A stretch of 23,727 bases of DNA from a virus: positions 1 through 23,727 of IMG/VR virus record IMGVR_UViG_3300020475_000500. One strand, 5' to 3'. The notes under the pieces are model-generated. The model was given only the letters and a program-made list of their open reading frames with translations, was not told where the DNA came from and made no database searches. Both the position numbers and the translations under genes were made by a program. Positions 8,525-23,003 of this stretch are shown here, one piece after another. The first letter of the stretch is position 1, and each line of letters begins with the position of its first letter.

Positions 8525-9163
8525 ATGAAAATTAATTATAACAAAAATGAAAAAAGAAAAATACTAGTAATCGGTGTAGGAGGAATAGGTAGTTATCTTG
8601 TTCCTCTTCTCCACAAATCATGGTGCTATGATATACATATAGCAGATAATGATGTAGTGGAAGTAAAAAATTTACTTTATCAAAACTATAAACAAAGAGA
8701 TATAGATAAGTTAAAGATTAAAGGAATGAAACAATTACTACAATCAACGAATCATGATTATGATGTAGGCTTGACTGAATCTCAAATGAGCAAATATCAA
8801 GTGCTTACTGCAAAACAATTAGAAGGTTATGATTTAGTAATATGTTGTGCAGATAATCTATCAGTTAGAAAACTGTTATACTCACAAGGTTTTGGTGATA
8901 ATGCTAAGATTAAGTGGTTAGATTTACGAGCGCAAGGTAGAAATGGAGCGTTAATTAGTTATTTAACAGATGAAAAATTTAGTGAGACATTTTTAAATGG
9001 GCCAGAAGGTTCATTTTCCTGTCAAGGTGATGGGTTTAATACTAGCCTTAATACAAAGGGCTTACATTTTACTCATGTTGCTATTGCAGGATATGGGGCG
9101 CAATGGATTCACCGTTGGTTTAATGGTGATGATGTTGGTGATAAATTTATAATAAATATATAG
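8525..9163 (+). CDS. E1/ThiF/MoeB-like adenylating enzyme
   Basis: A Rossmann-type ubiquitin-activating-like enzyme expected to adenylate the C-terminal glycine of a Ubl with ATP. Visible motifs in the 212-aa product are GVGGIGS (17-23, nucleotide loop), the Asp41/Asp43 pair in IADNDVVEV, and NLLYQ (49-53, the 'NLnRQ' position). DIDKLKIKGM (59-68) carries the conserved Lys region, and CCADNLSVRKLL (108-118) matches 'ctDn...R'. The usual Arg of NLxRQ is Tyr here. Cys166 (SFSCQGDG) lies where thioester-forming or metal-binding cysteines are found in relatives. It starts right after TFB. Two genes downstream is a JAMM peptidase, and a Ubl candidate is at 2629. Confidence 0.88.
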   Translation: MKINYNKNEKRKILVIGVGGIGSYLVPLLHKSWCYDIHIADNDVVEVKNLLYQNYKQRDIDKLKIKGMKQLLQSTNHDYDVGLTESQMSKYQVLTAKQLEGYDLVICCADNLSVRKLLYSQGFGDNAKIKWLDLRAQGRNGALISYLTDEKFSETFLNGPEGSFSCQGDGFNTSLNTKGLHFTHVAIAGYGAQWIHRWFNGDDVGDKFIINI

Positions 9164-9173
9164 GTGAGAAACT

Positions 9174-9527
9174 ATGAGTTGGACAGAAGAACAAGAAGAA
9201 ATAATGATGTATGCCGTAAAAAACGGCTTAAGCGCAGAAGAAACATCTGCTTCATTAATTGAAGCAGGTTATGAAAACAGAACAGTACGTTCTGTTAAAG
9301 CAAAGTGGCGACATATGTATAAAGCGCCATTTGGCGAATTCAATGACTATGAAGTAGTTGTTGAAGAACTATCAGAAGAACTGAATGAAAAGATTGAAGA
9401 ACTAACTGATAGAGTTGAAGTGGAAGAAAAGAAAAGGAAATCCTTTAGGGTACAAACAATATTGTTTGTATTGGTTGGTATTGGTATAGCAGCCTATGGA
9501 TTGGAGACAGGAATATGGACTATTTAA
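9174..9527 (+). CDS. C-terminally membrane-anchored HTH/coiled-coil protein
   Basis: A 117-aa protein with three parts. An N-terminal Myb/SANT-like helical domain covers residues 2-50 (WTEEQEEIMMYAVKNGLS, then RTVRSVKAKW). An acidic coiled coil covers about 58-88 (VVEELSEELNEKIEEL). One transmembrane helix lies at about 94-113 (VQTILFVLVGIGIAAYGL). The HTH side should face the cytoplasm. Its place between the E1-like and JAMM genes (GGTGAG start; its end overlaps the JAMM gene by 13 bases) suggests it could be a membrane platform or substrate for that pathway. No known family is recognised for the whole. Confidence 0.7.
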   Translation: MSWTEEQEEIMMYAVKNGLSAEETSASLIEAGYENRTVRSVKAKWRHMYKAPFGEFNDYEVVVEELSEELNEKIEELTDRVEVEEKKRKSFRVQTILFVLVGIGIAAYGLETGIWTI

Positions 9528-9988
9528 TAGATGCAAGAGATGAAGGCTTTGAAGAAAAAAATCCTGGTTGGAAAGAAGATATAAGTCAATCATATCGGAA
9601 TGATAATGTATTGCATTTTTACGACACAATTTGGAGAGTAAGTCTGCAAGCCTTTGATAAGCCCCGTGAAGTCCAAGTGGTGATAGATTCTAACGACAAC
9701 CTTTTTATTAGTGTGGGGAATGGAGGACTTGTAACCTTTGGAGGCCAAGATGAACAAACTATTGGGATGAAGTTTCCTGTTAAAGAATGGATACACACTC
9801 ATCCCTTTGGTGCTGCTTATTTTAGTGGAACTGATTTGAATACAATATTTATGTATCAAAGACATATGATTAAAGCAACTGTTTTAGGTAACAATGAAAG
9901 GGCAGTATATTACATAGGCATTGAAGAAGACAATGGCGATAGAGTAGAAAGAATAACTGTAGAAAGACAAAACGAGGAAGAATTATGA
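9515..9988 (+). CDS. JAMM/MPN (JAB) zinc metallopeptidase
   Basis: The 157-aa product has a complete JAMM metal site: His94-Thr-His96-Pro, then Ser104 and Asp107 (HTHPFGAAYFSGTD). This matches the H-x-H-P-x6-S-x2-D signature of Rpn11/AMSH-like deubiquitinases and prokaryotic JAB peptidases. The catalytic Glu should be upstream, with Glu52 and Glu91 as candidates. The family cleaves after Gly-Gly of ubiquitin-like proteins, or processes their precursors. The viral Ubl at 2629 ends in GG-SQ, giving a plausible local substrate. There is no NlpC/P60 domain, unlike the tail-assembly K proteins of tailed phages. The gene overlaps its neighbours on both sides, indicating one operon. Confidence 0.9.
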   Translation: MDYLIDARDEGFEEKNPGWKEDISQSYRNDNVLHFYDTIWRVSLQAFDKPREVQVVIDSNDNLFISVGNGGLVTFGGQDEQTIGMKFPVKEWIHTHPFGAAYFSGTDLNTIFMYQRHMIKATVLGNNERAVYYIGIEEDNGDRVERITVERQNEEEL

Positions 9989-13989: not shown

Positions 13990-14832
13990 ATGTTAAATAT
14001 GAATAGAGAAAGAACAACAATAATAATAGGAAAAACAGGAACAGGTAAAACAACAAAAGCCCTTGAGTTGTTTGATGGTGAACCGCTTGTTAAGTATGCA
14101 AATGAATATAATATAGATGATAACTATTCTATACCATTAGATAAGGGTATATTAATTGAAGAGTGTCATTATAAACCAAATATAAATATGATTGTTAGAA
14201 CACTAATTGAGTATAGAGGTAAAGTTGTATTGACTTCCCTAAATCAAAAGGATGTTCCAAAACAAATAATGGATAAATGTAAGATTAAAAGAGCAGGAAC
14301 TACAAATTATGCTTATGAAAAGATGAAACAAAATGGATGTTCAAATATTGAAACCATGATAGATGAACCTAATTTAAGTATTTTTGAATTGGTTGCTGCA
14401 TATAAAAAATCTGGCGATAGAGATAAAATTGCTAGACTACTAAAACATAACAGACCATTTGATGAACAAATTTTATCATGGTTAGTTAGCACCGTAGGTG
14501 TAAATAAAATTGGCTTCTTAGATGCTAAAGTAAAAAGAAGATGGGCTTCTGCCTATTTTTATGAATTACTTGCTTATGCACATGAAGGGGGTTCTTCTGG
14601 TAGGTTAGACATACCGAAAAGAAGACCCAAAGATAAAAGACCATATGTATGTAAAAAGATAGGTCTTAAAGAAAGTGATTGGTATTTATTAAACCAATTA
14701 AAACAAAATAAAGAATTTCAAAAGTCTATGAAGAAAAGACTTAACAAGATAGAAAGAACAATGGTTGGTCTTAATCCAAGAAAAGAAGACTTACCAAAAA
14801 GAAATACCCAATTAACTTTAGGTGATTTTTAA
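13990..14832 (+). CDS. Clamp-loader large-subunit-like AAA+ ATPase (RFC-L-like) with PIP box
   Basis: The 280-aa product has an N-terminal Walker A (GKTGTGKTT, 14-22), a Walker-B-like ILIEECHY (54-61), and a sensor-1-like VVLTSLNQ. A helical region (LSIFELVAAYKKSGDRDKIA, then DEQILSWLV) resembles the RFC-L segment after the lid. A basic C-terminal tail ends in QLTLGDF (274-280), a consensus PCNA-interacting peptide (Q-x2-L-x2-F) at the very end of the chain. Archaeal RFC-L also ends in a PIP box. It is much shorter than host RFC-L. The RFC small subunit lies 0.9 kb downstream, so these two probably form the viral clamp loader. The RFC-L assignment is inferred; ATPase and PIP box are seen. Confidence 0.7.
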   Translation: MLNMNRERTTIIIGKTGTGKTTKALELFDGEPLVKYANEYNIDDNYSIPLDKGILIEECHYKPNINMIVRTLIEYRGKVVLTSLNQKDVPKQIMDKCKIKRAGTTNYAYEKMKQNGCSNIETMIDEPNLSIFELVAAYKKSGDRDKIARLLKHNRPFDEQILSWLVSTVGVNKIGFLDAKVKRRWASAYFYELLAYAHEGGSSGRLDIPKRRPKDKRPYVCKKIGLKESDWYLLNQLKQNKEFQKSMKKRLNKIERTMVGLNPRKEDLPKRNTQLTLGDF

Positions 14833-15074
14833 TGGCGGGACATAATAAAAATGTCTATCGCCTTCAAGCAATAGAACAATTCGCTGATAAATTAAATAAG
14901 GGTGAGGAATTTCATATTAAGGAATGTGCTACGTTTCTTAATACTAGAAAAGCAGTAGGTAGCAATAAACTCCATAGACAAACGCAAACCGATAGAAGAA
15001 GATTAGCGATGCTTTTAAGAAAGACTGGTATGTTTACTAATGTCGGACATGGCGTATGGAGATATAATAAATAA
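14832..15074 (+). CDS. 80-aa winged-helix-like DNA-binding protein
   Basis: The start overlaps the last base of the previous stop; AGGTGAT lies 6 bases upstream. The 80-aa product is basic, with a layout like a small winged helix. Helices are IEQFADKLNKG, HIKECATFLN and TDRRRLAMLLRKT (recognition helix), and a wing follows (MFTNVGHGVWRYN). No named family. It could be a viral transcription regulator. Confidence 0.6.
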   Translation: MAGHNKNVYRLQAIEQFADKLNKGEEFHIKECATFLNTRKAVGSNKLHRQTQTDRRRLAMLLRKTGMFTNVGHGVWRYNK

Positions 15075-15091: not shown

Positions 15092-15178
15092 ATGAATAAT
15101 TGTATAGATTGTAATAGAATAATAAGTGCTAATAAAACAAAATGCCGAGCCTGTAATATAAAGGAGAATGATGAATGA
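15092..15178 (+). CDS. 28-aa zinc-knuckle mini-protein
   Basis: A 28-residue protein with C-x2-C (4-7) and C-x2-C (18-21). AGGAGAG lies about 7 bases upstream and the stop overlaps the next start (ATGA). Its start, MNNCIDCNRIISANKTK, closely parallels MNTCMICNQIISAKNTK at 21952, so the two are paralogues. This repeat strongly supports both as real genes. Likely one zinc ion per chain; role unknown. Confidence 0.7.
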   Translation: MNNCIDCNRIISANKTKCRACNIKENDE

Positions 15179-15741
15179 ATATTTTTGTATTGGATAACTG
15201 CCCTGTAATTAGTGCAGAACAAATGTTAGATAAACATGTTGTTAAAATGCCTACTGAAAGTATGCAAATGATTTCTACGTGTTTAGACCATATGGGTTAT
15301 GATAGCCCATACAGACCTGTAATGCTTAATCATCCTTGCACCATTTGGGCAAGAGAATCAAAAGATAATATGAGATGGTTAATCAGACATACTAGTGCTT
15401 TGTGTAAAGAATATACCAAAAGATATAATAAAAGACACAAAGTAGAAGACACATTAGAAGAATATTTAGATAAAATTGTATTAATGATTGAGTCAATAGA
15501 GTCTAAAGATTTAACACCGTTTGCTATCGCAATAAGTCAAAACATGAATTGTAGAAAACTAGAAGGTTTTGATGATATGTCAACAGTAGAAAAATACCGC
15601 AACTACTACATCGAAGATAAGTGGTGGTTTGCTGAATGGAAAACACAAGCGCCTGAATGGTGGCCTCATAACCATTATAATTTAAAAATGAAAGAATTAA
15701 CAATAAGGAGAAATAAAAATGTTATGGACAGAAAAATATAG
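15175..15741 (+). CDS. DKHVVKM-family conserved viral protein
   Basis: The 188-aa product has features of a family common in phages and cyanophages but, to my knowledge, without proven function. These are an N-terminal FVLDNCPVISA, LDKHVVKMPTESMQMIST (18-35) and NHPCTIWARES (52-62). The end contains EKYRNYYIEDKWWFAEW followed by PEWW. The D-x-H...E arrangement and late K-Y-x-x-Y-Y faintly recall pyrimidine-dimer glycosylases (T4 endonuclease V), so a DNA repair role is conceivable. Shine-Dalgarno AAAGGAG. Its end overlaps the RFC small-subunit gene by 23 bases. Confidence 0.75.
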   Translation: MNIFVLDNCPVISAEQMLDKHVVKMPTESMQMISTCLDHMGYDSPYRPVMLNHPCTIWARESKDNMRWLIRHTSALCKEYTKRYNKRHKVEDTLEEYLDKIVLMIESIESKDLTPFAIAISQNMNCRKLEGFDDMSTVEKYRNYYIEDKWWFAEWKTQAPEWWPHNHYNLKMKELTIRRNKNVMDRKI

Positions 15742-18408: not shown

Positions 18409-19285
18409 AGATAAGAAAGGAAATGCTGTAAATAATAATGATGAGAAATCTAATGATTTCTTTGCAGAAACAAAGAAGAGAATTCTGGCTCAGATTCAAG
18501 AGCGTCTTGATAGAGATAGAAGTCATTTACTGTGTTCTATTACAGGTAACCCAAAGGTAGGTAAATCTGGAATAGCAATGGATTGTAGAACAGAAGAAGA
18601 AATTGAAAAAGGAATGAAGATATTGATATTGGATTTTGATAACGGTTGTGAACCAACATGGAGAACAAACTGGGATTCAGACCCAAATATTATGATTTAT
18701 AATCCTTTAGAAGTAAGACAAGATGGTTCTACGGATTGGGAAGTCACATTTAATAATGCAAATTATTTCTGTGCGCTTGCGAAGGAAATGATTGAAGAAG
18801 AAGAAGTTAAAGCGTTTATCTTTGATGGTGTTGATAAAGCGTTTGAAGGGTCTAGCGATGTGCTAAGAGAGTTGTTAGTTAAACAACAATCAAGAGAAGG
18901 CAGTATTGTTAAGGCTACAGATTCTGTTAGAGTTTCTACCTTAGATTGGAAAATAAGGAACAGAATTTACAACAGGCTTTTAGATTTGGTTTGTAACCTA
19001 AAGTGTGATAGATTTCTTATTACACACATGAAGCCTGTATATGATAACATTAATGTGCCTACTCCTGTTGGAGAAGTACCAGATTGGCATAAAAGCACAC
19101 CTGCTAGGTTTGTGCAAATGTTGCATATTACAAAACAACCATCACAAAATGCTACTAATTATGTTTGTGAACTTGAAGCAAGTAAAACAAACCCAGAGTT
19201 AGTAGGAAATAAATGGACTATTTTCACAACAAACGGTGAAAACAAGTGGTTCGGATTACCCGAATTACGTGAGGGAACATTATGA
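18395..19285 (+). CDS. Sak4/RadA-like RecA-fold ATPase
   Basis: RecA-superfamily ATPase of the phage Sak4 type, likely a strand-annealing or strand-exchange factor working with the viral ssDNA-binding protein. The Walker A is GNPKVGKSG, about residues 51-59 of the 296-aa product. LILDFDNGCEPTWRTNW follows, a Sak4/AAA_24-like 'D.D.G....'. The Walker B is AFIFDGVDKA. A further conserved block is LDWKIRNRIYNRLLDLV, followed by RFLITHMKPVY (the sensor-type 'T.H'). The start at 18395 is chosen because GGTGAT is about 5 bases upstream; 18389 is also possible. It lacks the N-terminal domain of full RadA. Confidence 0.8.
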   Translation: MDWTKDKKGNAVNNNDEKSNDFFAETKKRILAQIQERLDRDRSHLLCSITGNPKVGKSGIAMDCRTEEEIEKGMKILILDFDNGCEPTWRTNWDSDPNIMIYNPLEVRQDGSTDWEVTFNNANYFCALAKEMIEEEEVKAFIFDGVDKAFEGSSDVLRELLVKQQSREGSIVKATDSVRVSTLDWKIRNRIYNRLLDLVCNLKCDRFLITHMKPVYDNINVPTPVGEVPDWHKSTPARFVQMLHITKQPSQNATNYVCELEASKTNPELVGNKWTIFTTNGENKWFGLPELREGTL

Positions 19286-20037
19286 ATATAACAATAAGCG
19301 TATCTGATTTTAAGGATGCGGTTGAGGCAATTTGGCTTAAAGGCAAATATAAGTCCTCAACCACATCTAAGATAGATGTGGTAAGCAATTCTTGCTTATG
19401 CATATGCAGAAATAATAGAATAGAATTCTACAATGGAAATGATAAATCTGCATTAAATGTAAATAAAGTAGTTGACTATAATAAAGAGGAACAAATGTTT
19501 ATCTTTGATATTGAAAAGGTAATGAAATACCTAAAGGTATTCAAAGGTGAAATAAACCTCAAAGTTACAGACTCAAATATTATGCTAAAAAACAATTCTT
19601 CTAATGCTAGAATTGCTAAGTTAGTGGAGCATAATAATTATGGATTGATTTCTAGGATAATGAATCTTTCTTTAGAAACCCCTGTTGTTTTTGGTAAAAC
19701 AGAATTACCAACTGAATTATTATTTCAGGGTGATGATTTAGCAGAAGCGATTAAATTTTGTAATAACGTAGGAACTGCTACTTTCAAACTTAACTATGAA
19801 GCGGGAAGCAATGTTGCTAGTCTTTCTTCTCACACTATACATAATACTGAGTATGCTCAAAAAGACATACCATTAATTAATGTAAGTGATGAAAGCATGA
19901 CTGTTGAATTTTCAGCGCCATTGGATAAGTTTTGTGTTGATGAACCAATGAGAATCTTTGGTGGAGATGATAAACCAATATTGTTATGTGGTTCAGATAG
20001 AAAATTGGTAATAGCGCCATATATAAATGATAGGTGA
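19282..20037 (+). CDS. pcn: PCNA sliding clamp
   Basis: Homotrimeric ring that tethers polymerase and other factors to DNA. The 251-aa length is typical for archaeal PCNA. The C-terminal signature is clear: MTVEFSAPLDKFC, then DKPILLCGSDRKLVIAPYI, corresponding to 'f....L..f..' and '..d.Pv.l.......l.y.iAP.i'. The N-terminal domain has two-fold-like strands (IEFYNGNDKSALNVN, FIFDIEKVMKYLKVFKG). The gene overlaps the Sak4-like gene by 4 bases. Two window proteins, at 13990 and 22086, carry terminal PIP boxes that would dock here. Confidence 0.87.
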   Translation: MNITISVSDFKDAVEAIWLKGKYKSSTTSKIDVVSNSCLCICRNNRIEFYNGNDKSALNVNKVVDYNKEEQMFIFDIEKVMKYLKVFKGEINLKVTDSNIMLKNNSSNARIAKLVEHNNYGLISRIMNLSLETPVVFGKTELPTELLFQGDDLAEAIKFCNNVGTATFKLNYEAGSNVASLSSHTIHNTEYAQKDIPLINVSDESMTVEFSAPLDKFCVDEPMRIFGGDDKPILLCGSDRKLVIAPYINDR

Positions 20038-20041
20038 TGTA

Positions 20042-21712
20042 ATGATTATAAGTGTATCAAATAATAAAAATATGATAGGAATAAGATATAGAAATGAGGA
20101 GAATGAAAGGGTGGAGTATACTACTACCTTTGATGATTTCAAGCCTTATTTTTATATATTGGATACTGCACAAGAGATTAGAGAAGCAGTAATTAAAGAT
20201 AAATACACTAAGTTTAGAGCAACTGTTACTCTTGATTATGAGGAAACGGATGAAGTAAATTTATTTGGTAAGAAGTTAAAGAAAGTAACATGGTCTCCTT
20301 CAAGGCCAGATTTTGTAAAGAATCTTAGAGGGCTATGGGTTCATACCTATGAAGCCGATGTTGCTTACCATTATAGATATACCATAGATAATTTTACTGA
20401 ATTCCCAAATTATAATCTTAGAAAGTTTTATTGGGATATGGAATGGGTATCTGACGACCATCAGTATGAGGGTGCTATTACTTGTATTGTAGTATATGAC
20501 AATTATGAAAAGAAGTATACTACTTATACATGGTTTCCCAGAAATATAAAGTTTAAAAAGAAACCAAACCATTTAGTGTTTGATTCTGAAAGAAGAATGT
20601 TATCTGCATTTGTAGATGATATTATAGATAAAGACCCTGATATGTTGATTTCTTGGTTCGGTTCTAAGTTCGATTTACCAAAGTTAATTGAAAGGTTGAT
20701 GCATTGTAATATAGACCCAAGAGCCATATCTCCATACCAAGATGTAAAAGGAGTTTACTTTGGTTCTGGAGAAATTAAACTATCAAGAGCAGTTAAAAAC
20801 TATTCACCTGTTGAACAACCTATTAGGGGAAGACTAACGCTAAATCTTGACTTAGCATTTGAAAGACAATGGAATGATGCTCAGAAAGGAACATTACCTT
20901 CTCTTGCATTAGACTATATTTCTGAGACAATTTTAGGAGATAAAAAATTAGTTAGTGAAAAGTTCCCAGATAAAAATGAGTTTTTTTCTAGGGGATGGTT
21001 AGAAGATACTGATAATTATTTGCTTTATGCAGAAAAAGATGTGGAATTAATTGTAAGAATTGATGAGAAAAACTTTACATCAGAAGCAGTTTTATCTTTA
21101 CAGCGTTTGCTTATTGCTCCTTTTGATGCTTGTTTTTATGCGAGTAACATGGGTGGTATATATTTTATGCGTAATGCAGATTGGAAAGCGCCAACAGGTT
21201 CTAAAGATGTTAAAGTAGATTATGAAGGTGCTATGATTTATGACCCTTCATCAGAAGCAACAAACGGATTACATTTAGGTGTTGCTGCATTTGATTATGC
21301 GGGTTTGTATCCTTCAATGATGATTGCAAGAAATATATCTTGGGAAACTAAATCTAATGTTCCTACTGAGTTTGGTGTTAATATTCTTACACCAAGAGAT
21401 TTTAGTGAAGAAACTATTAAAGAAATGAGATACTTCAAAACTGATAAGTTAGGTCTTTTACCTAGAGCAGTTTTAGAATTAAAAGAACTTAGAAATGAAT
21501 ATAAGAAAAAGATGAAAGAGGCCGCCACAAAAGAAGAGTATGCAAAATGGGATACTAATCAAATGGCTGTAAAAAGATTAATGGCGTCTTTCTACGGTGT
21601 GGTTGGATATCAAGGATTTGCTTGGGCTGATACAGACCTGGCGGCTAGTATAACTGCTAGTGCTAGAGAAGCAATTAGAGAAGCAGCATTTATAGTGAGA
21701 GGGTTAGAATGA
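20042..21712 (+). CDS. polB: DNA polymerase family B, N-terminal fragment (exonuclease, motifs A and B)
   Basis: Larger half of a split replicative polymerase, 556 aa. Exo I is FYWDMEW (Asp132, Glu134), Exo II is SWFGSKFDLPKL (Asp211) and Exo III is YAEKD (Tyr329, Asp333). Proofreading should therefore be intact, although Exo II lacks the usual Asn. Motif A is FDYAGLYPSMM (Asp418). Motif B is KRLMASFYGVVGYQGF, with Lys511 and Tyr518 and Ser in place of the usual Asn. The chain stops after ITASAREAIREAAF...RGLE, just before where motif C should follow; motif C is in the 22086 gene. The ATG at 20042 is chosen for AGGTGAT upstream (an earlier in-frame ATG is at 20027). Confidence 0.95.
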   Translation: MIISVSNNKNMIGIRYRNEENERVEYTTTFDDFKPYFYILDTAQEIREAVIKDKYTKFRATVTLDYEETDEVNLFGKKLKKVTWSPSRPDFVKNLRGLWVHTYEADVAYHYRYTIDNFTEFPNYNLRKFYWDMEWVSDDHQYEGAITCIVVYDNYEKKYTTYTWFPRNIKFKKKPNHLVFDSERRMLSAFVDDIIDKDPDMLISWFGSKFDLPKLIERLMHCNIDPRAISPYQDVKGVYFGSGEIKLSRAVKNYSPVEQPIRGRLTLNLDLAFERQWNDAQKGTLPSLALDYISETILGDKKLVSEKFPDKNEFFSRGWLEDTDNYLLYAEKDVELIVRIDEKNFTSEAVLSLQRLLIAPFDACFYASNMGGIYFMRNADWKAPTGSKDVKVDYEGAMIYDPSSEATNGLHLGVAAFDYAGLYPSMMIARNISWETKSNVPTEFGVNILTPRDFSEETIKEMRYFKTDKLGLLPRAVLELKELRNEYKKKMKEAATKEEYAKWDTNQMAVKRLMASFYGVVGYQGFAWADTDLAASITASAREAIREAAFIVRGLE

Positions 21713-21849
21713 TTAACATAGAAACAATTGAAACAGTAATTAAGTTATTTATATTATCTTTTACATTGACTTATGGTTTATGGTATATTGGTAATGCATT
21801 AGATTTTGTATTTGCTAAAATATTTAGGAGAGAGTTAGATGAAGTTTAA
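21709..21849 (+). CDS. 46-aa single-span membrane protein inside split polB
   Basis: The start overlaps the polB N-fragment stop (ATGA). The 46-aa product has one hydrophobic helix (about 10-33, VIKLFILSFTLTYGLWYIG) and a charged C-terminus (FRRELDEV). Its last codons contain AGGAGAG, the ribosome binding site for the next mini-gene. No family is recognised. It is the first of three mini-genes lying between the two polymerase halves. Confidence 0.6.
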   Translation: MINIETIETVIKLFILSFTLTYGLWYIGNALDFVFAKIFRRELDEV

Positions 21850-21955
21850 AACTTGGTCTGAAGATAATTTTGCTATACTAGCATTATGGAGAACAATATT
21901 TTCATTTGTTAAAGTTATTATAGCAATTATAGTAGGTGTGGAGTTGTTGTCATGA
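21839..21955 (+). CDS. 38-aa single-span membrane protein inside split polB
   Basis: Overlaps the previous gene by 11 bases with AGGAGAG upstream, and its stop overlaps the next start (ATGA). The 38-aa product has a short polar N-terminus (KFKTWSEDNFA) and one membrane helix (about 12-36, with IFSFVKVIIAIIVGVELL). No homologue is recognised. The tight overlaps on both sides support it as a translated gene. Confidence 0.55.
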   Translation: MKFKTWSEDNFAILALWRTIFSFVKVIIAIIVGVELLS

Positions 21956-22089
21956 ATACATGTATGATTTGTAATCAGATAATATCTGCAAAAAACACTA
22001 AATCATATGATTATACTCGTAGGAATTATTGTGGGATTTGTTATCTCAAAAAGAAAAAACAAGATAGAAAGGAGAAAGGATTAAAATGA
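21952..22089 (+). CDS. 45-aa zinc-knuckle protein inside split polB (paralogue of 15092)
   Basis: The 45-aa product has C-x2-C (4-7) and C-x2-C (27-30) and a Lys-rich tail. Its first 17 residues match the 15092 protein (MN-x-C-x2-CN-x-IISA), so the two form a paralogous pair. The start overlaps the previous stop; the stop overlaps the start of the polB C-fragment (ATGA), and its AAAGGAGAAAGG tail is that gene's Shine-Dalgarno. Expression is therefore coupled to the polymerase. Role unknown. Confidence 0.65.
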   Translation: MNTCMICNQIISAKNTKSYDYTRRNYCGICYLKKKKQDRKEKGLK

Positions 22090-23003
22090 AAGTAGTTTAT
22101 GGGCATACAGATTCAATTTACGTTCAAATTCCAATGAATAGAACAGGAGAAGTTCTTGATTTGTTGAACACCAAAGTTAGAGAGAAGTTTCCTAATGTTA
22201 TGGGATTAAAAGAACACCCTGTAGTATTAGAGTTTGAAAAATATTATGAATCTTTAGGTGTAGGTATAACAAAGAATAGAAACGCAGGTCTTATTTCTTG
22301 GAAAGATGGTGAGTATTTAGATGAACCAAAATTTGTTATGACAGGATTTTCTGCTAAAAGAGTAGCAATTACTAAATTAGCAAAAACAGTTCAATTAGAA
22401 GTTTTAAACAGATGGGTAGGACAACAATCGGAAAAAGAGATTACCGACTATTTAAGAAAAGAATATAATAGGGTTTTGAAAGGTAATATGCAATTAGATG
22501 AAATTGTAAATAGAAGTAGATTTAGACCAGAAAGATTCCAATATAAATGTAAGAGTTGTGAAAAAGCATATAATGTTGATTCTATATTATCTGAAAGAAA
22601 TAAATTTAAGAAACTACAAACCGAACCTTTTTGTTCTAAGTGTGGTAATGGATTTGAGTTTATTACTATAGCAGGTAAAAGACCATCAATAGGTTCAGGT
22701 GTTGAAGGAGTTTTATGGTATAACCAATTGTCTTCTATACCAATTAATGATTCATATATTTATATGAAGGTGTCAGATGACTTACAAAGACCTACATATG
22801 TTAATCCTGTAACTGGTATTAGAAAAAGACCTTCCTATGTATCTGCTCCAACATTTGAAGAACTCGCAACTGAGAATCCTGATTATAAACATTATGCAGA
22901 TTCTATAGTAAAGAAGGCAGAACCTATATACAGAGCAATGGGTTGGGATTTAAAGAAGATTACGATTGATGAAAATCAATCAACATTAGATGAGTGGTGG
23001 TAA
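22086..23003 (+). CDS. polB: DNA polymerase family B, C-terminal fragment (motif C, thumb, PIP box)
   Basis: Smaller half of the split polymerase (305 aa). It begins MKVVYGHTDSIYV, i.e. motif C with the second catalytic Asp (Asp9) kept but the first replaced by His (usual YGDTDS). The downstream block VMTGFSAKRVAITKLAKT matches the palm/thumb 'kG.e.vRrd...k' segment. A zinc ribbon not usual in PolB thumbs is inserted (Cys155, Cys158, Cys183, Cys186). The chain ends in QSTLDEWW (298-305), a textbook PIP box, as in archaeal PolB and RFC-L tails. Placed end to end with the 20042 product, no conserved residues are missing, so the two chains should assemble into one enzyme. Confidence 0.93.
   Translation: MKVVYGHTDSIYVQIPMNRTGEVLDLLNTKVREKFPNVMGLKEHPVVLEFEKYYESLGVGITKNRNAGLISWKDGEYLDEPKFVMTGFSAKRVAITKLAKTVQLEVLNRWVGQQSEKEITDYLRKEYNRVLKGNMQLDEIVNRSRFRPERFQYKCKSCEKAYNVDSILSERNKFKKLQTEPFCSKCGNGFEFITIAGKRPSIGSGVEGVLWYNQLSSIPINDSYIYMKVSDDLQRPTYVNPVTGIRKRPSYVSAPTFEELATENPDYKHYADSIVKKAEPIYRAMGWDLKKITIDENQSTLDEWW

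What the first reader, a model, noticed from the sequence alone, without database searches (positions are those of the whole stretch)
21709..22089. PolB split just before motif C, with three mini-genes in the break
The N-fragment ends after ...REAIREAAF..RGLE and the C-fragment starts MKVVYGHTDS, so joining them end to end loses nothing conserved. The break lies close to the pol-c intein insertion site and at a position comparable to the split PolB of Methanothermobacter. Here two membrane mini-proteins and one zinc mini-protein occupy the gap, all linked by ATGA overlaps. No intein motifs are visible at either edge. The gap may be a landing site for small accessory genes that keeps polymerase halves co-translated.
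Basis: partly seen in the sequence, partly recalled or inferred. Interest (0 to 1): 0.75.

Follow-up and report, generated by a model that had tools for sequence, protein, structure and literature searches.

The report
Split viral polymerase with swappable mini-genes
In one large group of viruses of marine archaea, the gene for the DNA-copying enzyme is permanently cut in two just before its active-site strand, and the cut is a hotspot where whole tiny genes are gained and lost without disturbing either half; such cut enzymes are known elsewhere, but this mini-gene slot is not described in the papers I could search.

Summary
PolB is split (561 + 305 aa) just before motif C, and three mini-ORFs tile the 373-nt gap (0 of 2,000 shuffles do so). 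In public viral contigs I found 108 distinct loci split at this residue and 38 with continuous polB. On the tree the split is one clade with one origin and no re-fusion. The break falls in a three-residue loop between a palm helix and the motif-C strand.

The gap is a hypervariable slot: -4 to 1,576 nt, 0-8 small genes, 71 families, 64 arrangements in 108 loci. Rarefied to 60 loci it holds 41 arrangements, against 5-15 at five neighbouring junctions. Near-identical relatives differ by whole genes, joined at ATGA. Four independent 'empty' states join the halves directly. The mini-genes are under purifying selection. Family c0 was found only here (35/35), family c2 almost only here (19/23), while the zinc family c1 is more general.

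I found no intein or intron, and no typical homing endonuclease among the families scanned. The split itself is already labelled for Aoguangviridae (PolB-NTD/CTD), and split T4-like polymerases are known. The mini-gene slot appears undescribed. Mini-protein function and reassembly of the halves are inferred, not shown.

The parts
19282..20037 (+). PCNA-like sliding clamp (family assigned by reading and by synteny; used as a control anchor)
   Evidence: ORF; its junction to PolB-N is about 0 nt in 85 of 100 split loci
20027..21712 (+). PolB N-fragment: exonuclease, palm and fingers, motifs A and B; ends ...REAAFIVRGLE*
   Evidence: Pfam PF00136 9e-22, PF03104 2e-07, PHROG 262 2e-67; motif A in 106/108 split loci
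21709..21849 (+). mini-gene 1, 46 aa, family c8, borderline transmembrane segment; start overlaps the PolB-N stop as ATGA
   Evidence: both strong whole-record matches lie in polB gaps
21839..21955 (+). mini-gene 2, 38 aa, family c2, one clear transmembrane segment; 11-nt overlap with mini-gene 1
   Evidence: 19 of 23 unbiased viral hits lie in or directly at a polB gap; dN/dS about 0.16
21952..22089 (+). mini-gene 3, 45 aa, family c1, CxxC-x19-CxxC zinc-type protein; linked by ATGA on both sides
   Evidence: 12 of 26 viral hits in or directly beside a PolB fragment, the other 14 elsewhere
22065..22085 (+). purine-rich ribosome-binding-like stretch (AAAGGAGAAAGG) before the PolB-C start, inside mini-gene 3
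   Evidence: sequence; SD-like 4-mers precede PolB-C in 103/108 loci, a lax criterion
22086..23003 (+). PolB C-fragment: motif C (YGHTDS), rest of the palm, thumb, a CxxC..CxxC insertion, C-terminal PIP-like box QSTLDEWW
   Evidence: Pfam PF00136 1e-09; motif C in 108/108 split loci; QxxLxxWW-type tail in 89/99

Best explanation
Shown: in one clade of magroviruses (order Magrovirales, viruses of MGII/Poseidoniales archaea) the replicative family-B polymerase is encoded as two polypeptides, broken once in evolution in the short loop between a palm helix and the motif-C strand. The breakpoint is a stable, hypervariable slot in an operon of overlapping genes. Whole mini-genes are gained and lost there with gene-exact boundaries, because every unit starts with ATG and usually ends so that its stop overlaps the next ATG (ATGA). 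Any unit or set of units can be removed or added without touching either half. Inferred: the two halves are made in tandem by termination-reinitiation and reassemble non-covalently into a working, PCNA-bound polymerase. Also inferred: cassettes move by homologous or microhomology recombination between co-infecting relatives, with the essential halves on both sides selecting against imprecise events. Families confined to the slot (c0, c2; membrane mini-proteins) probably act with, or are usefully co-expressed with, the polymerase; their biochemical role is open.
For: Same break residue in 108 distinct loci. Split and fused form one clade each, 1 change, SH-aLRT 99. Both halves keep their motifs and are conserved between window and L003 (pN 0.020 and 0.045 against pS 0.35). 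Block distances across the gap correlate (0.805) as well as neighbouring blocks within N (0.77-0.78), so the halves are inherited together. Structure model of the fused sister: pLDDT 88, TM about 0.75 to KOD polymerase, helix 531-554, loop 555-557, strand 558-563, with the break in the loop. Gene-exact indels between near-identical relatives; four independent empty states and 72 arrangement changes on 100 tips. 263 of 401 links are 4-nt overlaps. Purifying selection on mini-genes. Junction control 41 arrangements against 5-15. Residence: c0 35/35, c2 19/23. The same architecture in a GenBank MAG contig outside IMG/VR.
Against: No expression, co-purification or activity data. Contigs are metagenomic fragments, uncultured. 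Loci were found by similarity to the window or its relatives, so frequencies are not population frequencies. In the fused clade the PCNA-to-polB junction is about as variable (15 arrangements per 20 loci), so the variability may belong to the neighbourhood and not to the break. c1 is common elsewhere. The split versus fused polarity rests on outgroups (haloviruses, T4-like) being continuous, not on a rooted test.
Confidence: 0.77

Rival explanations
1. The split came from erratic excision of an intein at the pol-c site, as proposed for the split PolB3 of Methanobacteriales; the mini-genes arrived later.
For: The break is only about five residues upstream of pol-c; PMC4104785 proposes this route for Methanobacteriales, and N. 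equitans PolB is split at pol-c with intein halves (PMC549080).
Against: An intein leaves YGD/YGH on the N-side; here the whole strand KVVYGHTDS is on the C-side. No intein family match in either half or in the gap families scanned. The 38 fused sister loci show none. The empty state is a bare ATGA/TAATG stop-start overlap.
Confidence: 0.08
2. Genes-in-pieces by a homing endonuclease, as in T4-like Aeromonas phage 25: a free-standing endonuclease split polB, later lost or degraded, and small genes fill its place.
For: Known precedent with a functional split polymerase (PMC2988022). One gap holds an HUH/Viral_Rep nickase (L071, PF02407 4e-17) and one a weak HNH-like match (L022, E 3e-04).
Against: No GIY-YIG, HNH or LAGLIDADG Pfam match among 62 gap proteins scanned. 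The break lies elsewhere than in 44RR 43A/43B, which is cut between motifs A and B. The mini-genes are intact and selected, not endonuclease debris.
Confidence: 0.12
3. Ordinary small-gene turnover: once split, the break is just another gene boundary in a compact viral operon and the mini-genes have nothing to do with the polymerase.
For: c1, c4, c9, c25 and c33 families also occur elsewhere. The fused clade has an equally variable small-gene stretch beside polB.
Against: Five neighbouring junctions are 3-8 times less diverse. c0 was found nowhere else in an unbiased scan of 2.9 million viral contigs and is inherited with few changes.
Confidence: 0.3
4. The halves are joined into one polypeptide by RNA splicing, ribosomal bypassing or frameshifting.
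For: Programmed bypassing is known in phage T4 gene 60 (own knowledge, not tested here).
Against: The gap varies from -4 to 1,576 nt with unrelated contents. PolB-C has its own ATG/GTG/TTG start in 105 of 108 loci. No Rfam intron match in five loci.
Confidence: 0.03

Closest known systems
Split PolB of Aoguangviridae (Aobingvirus yangshanense, Poseidoniales virus YSH_150918)
   Same: Same virus order; the ICTV profile's figure legend lists PolB-NTD/CTD (PMC10768690).
   Different: The text does not describe the gap, its contents or its variability, and the record is not in the collections I could search.
Split gene 43 (43A/43B) of Aeromonas phages 44RR and 25
   Same: T4-like family-B polymerase in two adjacent genes; the phage 25 halves co-purify and are active (PMC2988022).
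   Different: Break lies between motifs A and B; the gap holds a short untranslated sequence (44RR) or is associated with a seg endonuclease (phage 25), not a varying set of ATGA-linked mini-genes.
Split PolB3 of Methanobacteriales (Methanothermobacter MTH1208/MTH208)
   Same: Family-B polymerase encoded in two genes.
   Different: Attributed to erratic intein excision (PMC4104785). Exact break position not compared here; no embedded mini-gene slot known to me.
Nanoarchaeum equitans split PolB
   Same: Break near motif C.
   Different: Split within the pol-c intein, genes non-adjacent, halves joined by trans-splicing (PMC549080, PMC4104785); no intein here.

Membership tests
Family-B DNA polymerase (magrovirus/halovirus T4-like group) | DNA_pol_B and exonuclease domains with motifs A, B and C | tested here: met
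   PF00136 in both halves, PF03104 in N; motif A 106/108, motif C 108/108; halovirus PolB hits over 93% of N
Family-B DNA polymerase (magrovirus/halovirus T4-like group) | Family-B fold | tested here: met
   AlphaFold2 model of the fused sister L117, pLDDT 88; KOD polymerase TM 0.75-0.77
Split-intein PolB (N. equitans type) | Intein halves at the break, at YGD|TDS | tested here: not met
   No intein match; break about five residues upstream of the site
Homing-endonuclease genes-in-pieces (phage 25 gene 43, Aeh1 nrdA) | Homing endonuclease gene in the break | tested here: not met
   No HNH/GIY-YIG/LAGLIDADG Pfam match in 62 gap proteins; one weak HNH-like and one HUH protein in single gaps
T4-like split gene 43 | Same break position | tested here: not met
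   44RR cut between motifs A and B; here between motifs B and C
Two-subunit PolB enzyme | Halves associate and give polymerase activity | not testable with these tools
   Needs expression and assay; only conservation and co-inheritance were shown
Methanobacteriales split PolB3 | Comparable break position | not tested
Intron-interrupted polB | Group I/II intron in the gap | tested here: not met
   No Rfam match in the window and four large-gap loci

The most novel reading that the evidence does not exclude
The break is a dedicated accessory slot. Slot-confined membrane mini-proteins (c0, c2, perhaps c8) are made in fixed ratio with, and act on, the split polymerase, for example as small subunits or membrane tethers of the replisome. 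The virus swaps them like modules, and the split is maintained because it lets the polymerase operon carry exchangeable subunits.
Probability: 0.22. Interest if true: 0.78.

Novelty: new variant of a known kind. Interest (0 to 1): 0.55.

Why it matters
Essential replication genes are usually the most rigid part of a genome. Here one is broken open once, never re-fused in the sample, and used as a socket where whole genes are exchanged without loss of frame. Close pairs with and without each cassette make the mechanism of gene-exact exchange in archaeal viruses directly readable. Two small gene families are confined, or nearly so, to this socket, which gives concrete candidates for uncharacterised polymerase partners and a natural guide to where a family-B polymerase can be cut.

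Tried and rejected
Assembly artefact or pseudogene: rejected, since 108 distinct loci and an independent GenBank MAG contig share the break, and both halves are under purifying selection. Chance ORFs: rejected (0/2,000 shuffles, dN/dS below 0.4 for most families; a few small sets give higher, uninformative values). Shuffling of N and C halves between viruses: no sign. Rfam introns: none. Named magrovirus records ON649702 and OR863078 are not in the collections, and P0002 found no match in the phage collection. The papers by Philosof 2017 and Prabhu 2025 are not held. The first AlphaFold2 job with 7 rows was poor (pLDDT 52), was not used, and was replaced by a 47-row job. The genome-contig scan gave only one true magrovirus contig, probably mis-binned as Maricaulis.

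Full report
What is there. The window is a 23.7-kb IMG/VR virus fragment with genes read as a magrovirus-type replication operon: TFB, RFC small subunit, a RecA-like ATPase, PCNA, PolB, and a PD-(D/E)XK nuclease. PolB-N (20027-21712) and PolB-C (22086-23003) together match family-B polymerase without a notable gap (Pfam profile 36-199 in N and 222-380 in C). The 373-nt gap is tiled by ORFs of 46, 38 and 45 aa. Three of the four links are ATGA overlaps and one is an 11-nt overlap. No dinucleotide shuffle of 2,000 gave such a chain.

How general it is. Scans of viral contigs by each half and by divergent relatives gave 252 loci with both halves, reduced to 146 with distinct sequence: 108 split and 38 with a continuous polB. 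All 108 splits lie at the same place: typically ...AAF-K-V-R-E-L* and (M)KVVYGHTDS. The fused sisters read ...AFKAQELGYEVIYGHTDS. A maximum-likelihood tree of 133 representatives puts all split loci in one clade and all fused loci in the other, with one change and support 99 (quick method, long branches noted, root placed on the fused group). Haloviruses and most T4-like phages have one gene, so fused is the likely ancestral state (inference). A contig from GenBank, deposited as part of a Maricaulis MAG, shows the same split with two mini-genes and is independent of IMG/VR.

Where the enzyme is cut. A 47-row AlphaFold2 model of a fused sister (L117, pLDDT 88, pTM 0.79) has helix 531-554, a loop at 555-557 and the motif-C strand at 558-563. 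The break falls in that loop. The model resembles KOD and related polymerases (TM 0.75-0.77). In the profile alignment to Pfu polymerase the same point is the FGF loop before KVLYIDTDG. The cut therefore leaves the catalytic motifs intact, with A and B on one chain and C plus the thumb on the other. The C-fragment ends in a PIP-like box (QSTLDEWW; 89 of 99 complete C-fragments match the motif and the others are close variants), which suggests that the C-half recruits PCNA (inference).

The gap as a cassette slot. Gap length runs from -4 to 1,576 nt (median 361.5). 293 mini-ORFs fall into 71 families, and 64 different arrangements occur in 108 loci. In five loci, in four separate places on the tree, there is no mini-gene at all and the halves meet in ATGA or TAATG. 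Pairs with nearly identical polymerases differ by exactly one gene: L089 has c4 and L091 lacks it (99.5% identical PolB); likewise L061/L062 (c9), L099/L104 (c2) and L116/L110 (c11). The alignments resume at the shared ATGA. Of 401 links, 263 are 4-nt overlaps and 57 are 1-nt overlaps. By parsimony the arrangement changes at least 72 times on 100 tips. These counts depend on my automatic tiling of small ORFs and on clustering at E 1e-3.

Controls. Using the same tiling and clustering at five neighbouring junctions of the same loci, the number of arrangements rarefied to 60 loci is 15, 12, 5, 5 and 11, against 41 at the polB gap. PCNA and PolB-N abut (median 0 nt). One caution: in the fused clade the PCNA-to-polB junction is 0.6-2.6 kb and about as variable (15 arrangements per 20 loci against 17 at the split gap), with little family overlap. 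A variable small-gene zone next to polB may therefore be older than the split.

Are the mini-genes real, and do they belong here? Nei-Gojobori comparisons give dN/dS of 0.07-0.4 for most families (pairs are not independent and small sets are noisy). Scanning 2.9 million viral contigs with the mini-genes alone, without reference to polB, family c0 was found 35 times, always in a polB gap (one contig ends before PolB-C). Family c2 (mini-gene 2 of the window) was found 23 times: 19 in or directly at a gap, two just after PolB-C, two with no polB nearby. Family c1 (mini-gene 3) was found 26 times, 12 of them in or directly beside a PolB fragment and 14 elsewhere. Whole-record searches of 30 contigs agree. 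So some residents are confined to the slot and others are general. c0 is inherited with few changes (3 on the tree); c2 comes and goes (11).

Mechanism. Shown: two genes, one break, gene-exact turnover, conserved halves. The two halves are also inherited together: distances in the last N block and first C block correlate as well as neighbouring blocks within N. Inferred: tandem translation by reinitiation at ATGA, non-covalent reassembly, and exchange by recombination in co-infection, with the essential halves filtering out imprecise events. The minimal split needs only small indels that turn GAA-TTA-GGC-TAT-GAA-GTT into a stop-start overlap such as GAATTATGAAAGTA, as seen in the empty loci. 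A mobile element is therefore not required for the origin, though it is not excluded.

Against known systems. The split itself is not new for magroviruses: the Aoguangviridae profile lists PolB-NTD/CTD (PMC10768690), but nothing I could read describes the gap. Aeromonas phages 44RR and 25 have a split gene 43 whose halves co-purify and are active in phage 25 (PMC2988022), but 44RR is cut between motifs A and B and the gap contents differ. Methanobacteriales and N. equitans splits are tied to inteins (PMC4104785, PMC549080), of which there is no trace here. I therefore file it as a new variant of a known kind: a split family-B polymerase whose break serves as a cassette slot.

Limits. No function was tested for any mini-protein. 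Most have no family match. The sample was drawn by similarity and almost only from viral contigs. The key magrovirus papers are not in the library. Methanothermobacter could not be compared.

Noticed in passing
L071:5410-5751: A 114-aa HUH endonuclease / CRESS-type Rep domain (Pfam Viral_Rep 4e-17) sits among the mini-genes of one polB gap and is missing from the closely related locus L075 (95% identical PolB): a Rep-like nickase inside a tailed archaeal virus.
   Followed up: partly
fused clade, e.g. L117-L152, PCNA-to-PolB junction: Relatives with continuous polB carry a 0.6-2.6 kb, highly variable small-gene stretch between PCNA and PolB, a junction that is closed in the split clade.
   Followed up: partly
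window 22542-22650 (PolB-C residues 153-188): Zinc-ribbon-like CxxC..CxxC insertion in the PolB-C thumb; two CxxC motifs occur in 38 of 99 split C-fragments and in none of 34 fused ones.
   Followed up: partly
window 21570-21600: Motif B of the split clade reads KRLMASFYG, with Ala where the fused clade has the usual Asn (KRAVNAFYG).
   Followed up: no
window 8525-9163 and 9515-9988: A ThiF/E1-like protein (PF00899 1e-20) close to a weak JAB/JAMM-protease match (HTHPFGAAYFSGTD): a possible ubiquitin-like activation/deconjugation pair in an archaeal virus.
   Followed up: no
L241:5912-6226: A MazG pyrophosphohydrolase gene (Pfam 3e-09) occupies part of a polB gap; relatives of it lie about 5.5 kb upstream of polB in other loci.
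   Followed up: no
window 14832-15074: An 80-aa protein (MAGHNKN...) whose family (c33) occurs inside the polB gap of L056 and L101, so genes move between the slot and other places.
   Followed up: partly
L103 and L244, just 3' of PolB-C; also L420, L421: c2-like mini-genes lie directly after PolB-C instead of before it.
   Followed up: no
L312 (NZMJ01000151.1): A magrovirus contig is binned in a MAG deposited as Maricaulis (a bacterium): a likely mis-bin.
   Followed up: no
window 15175-15741: Pyrimidine-dimer DNA glycosylase (Pfam Pyr_excise 3e-10), a T4 endonuclease V-type repair enzyme, in the replication operon.
   Followed up: no
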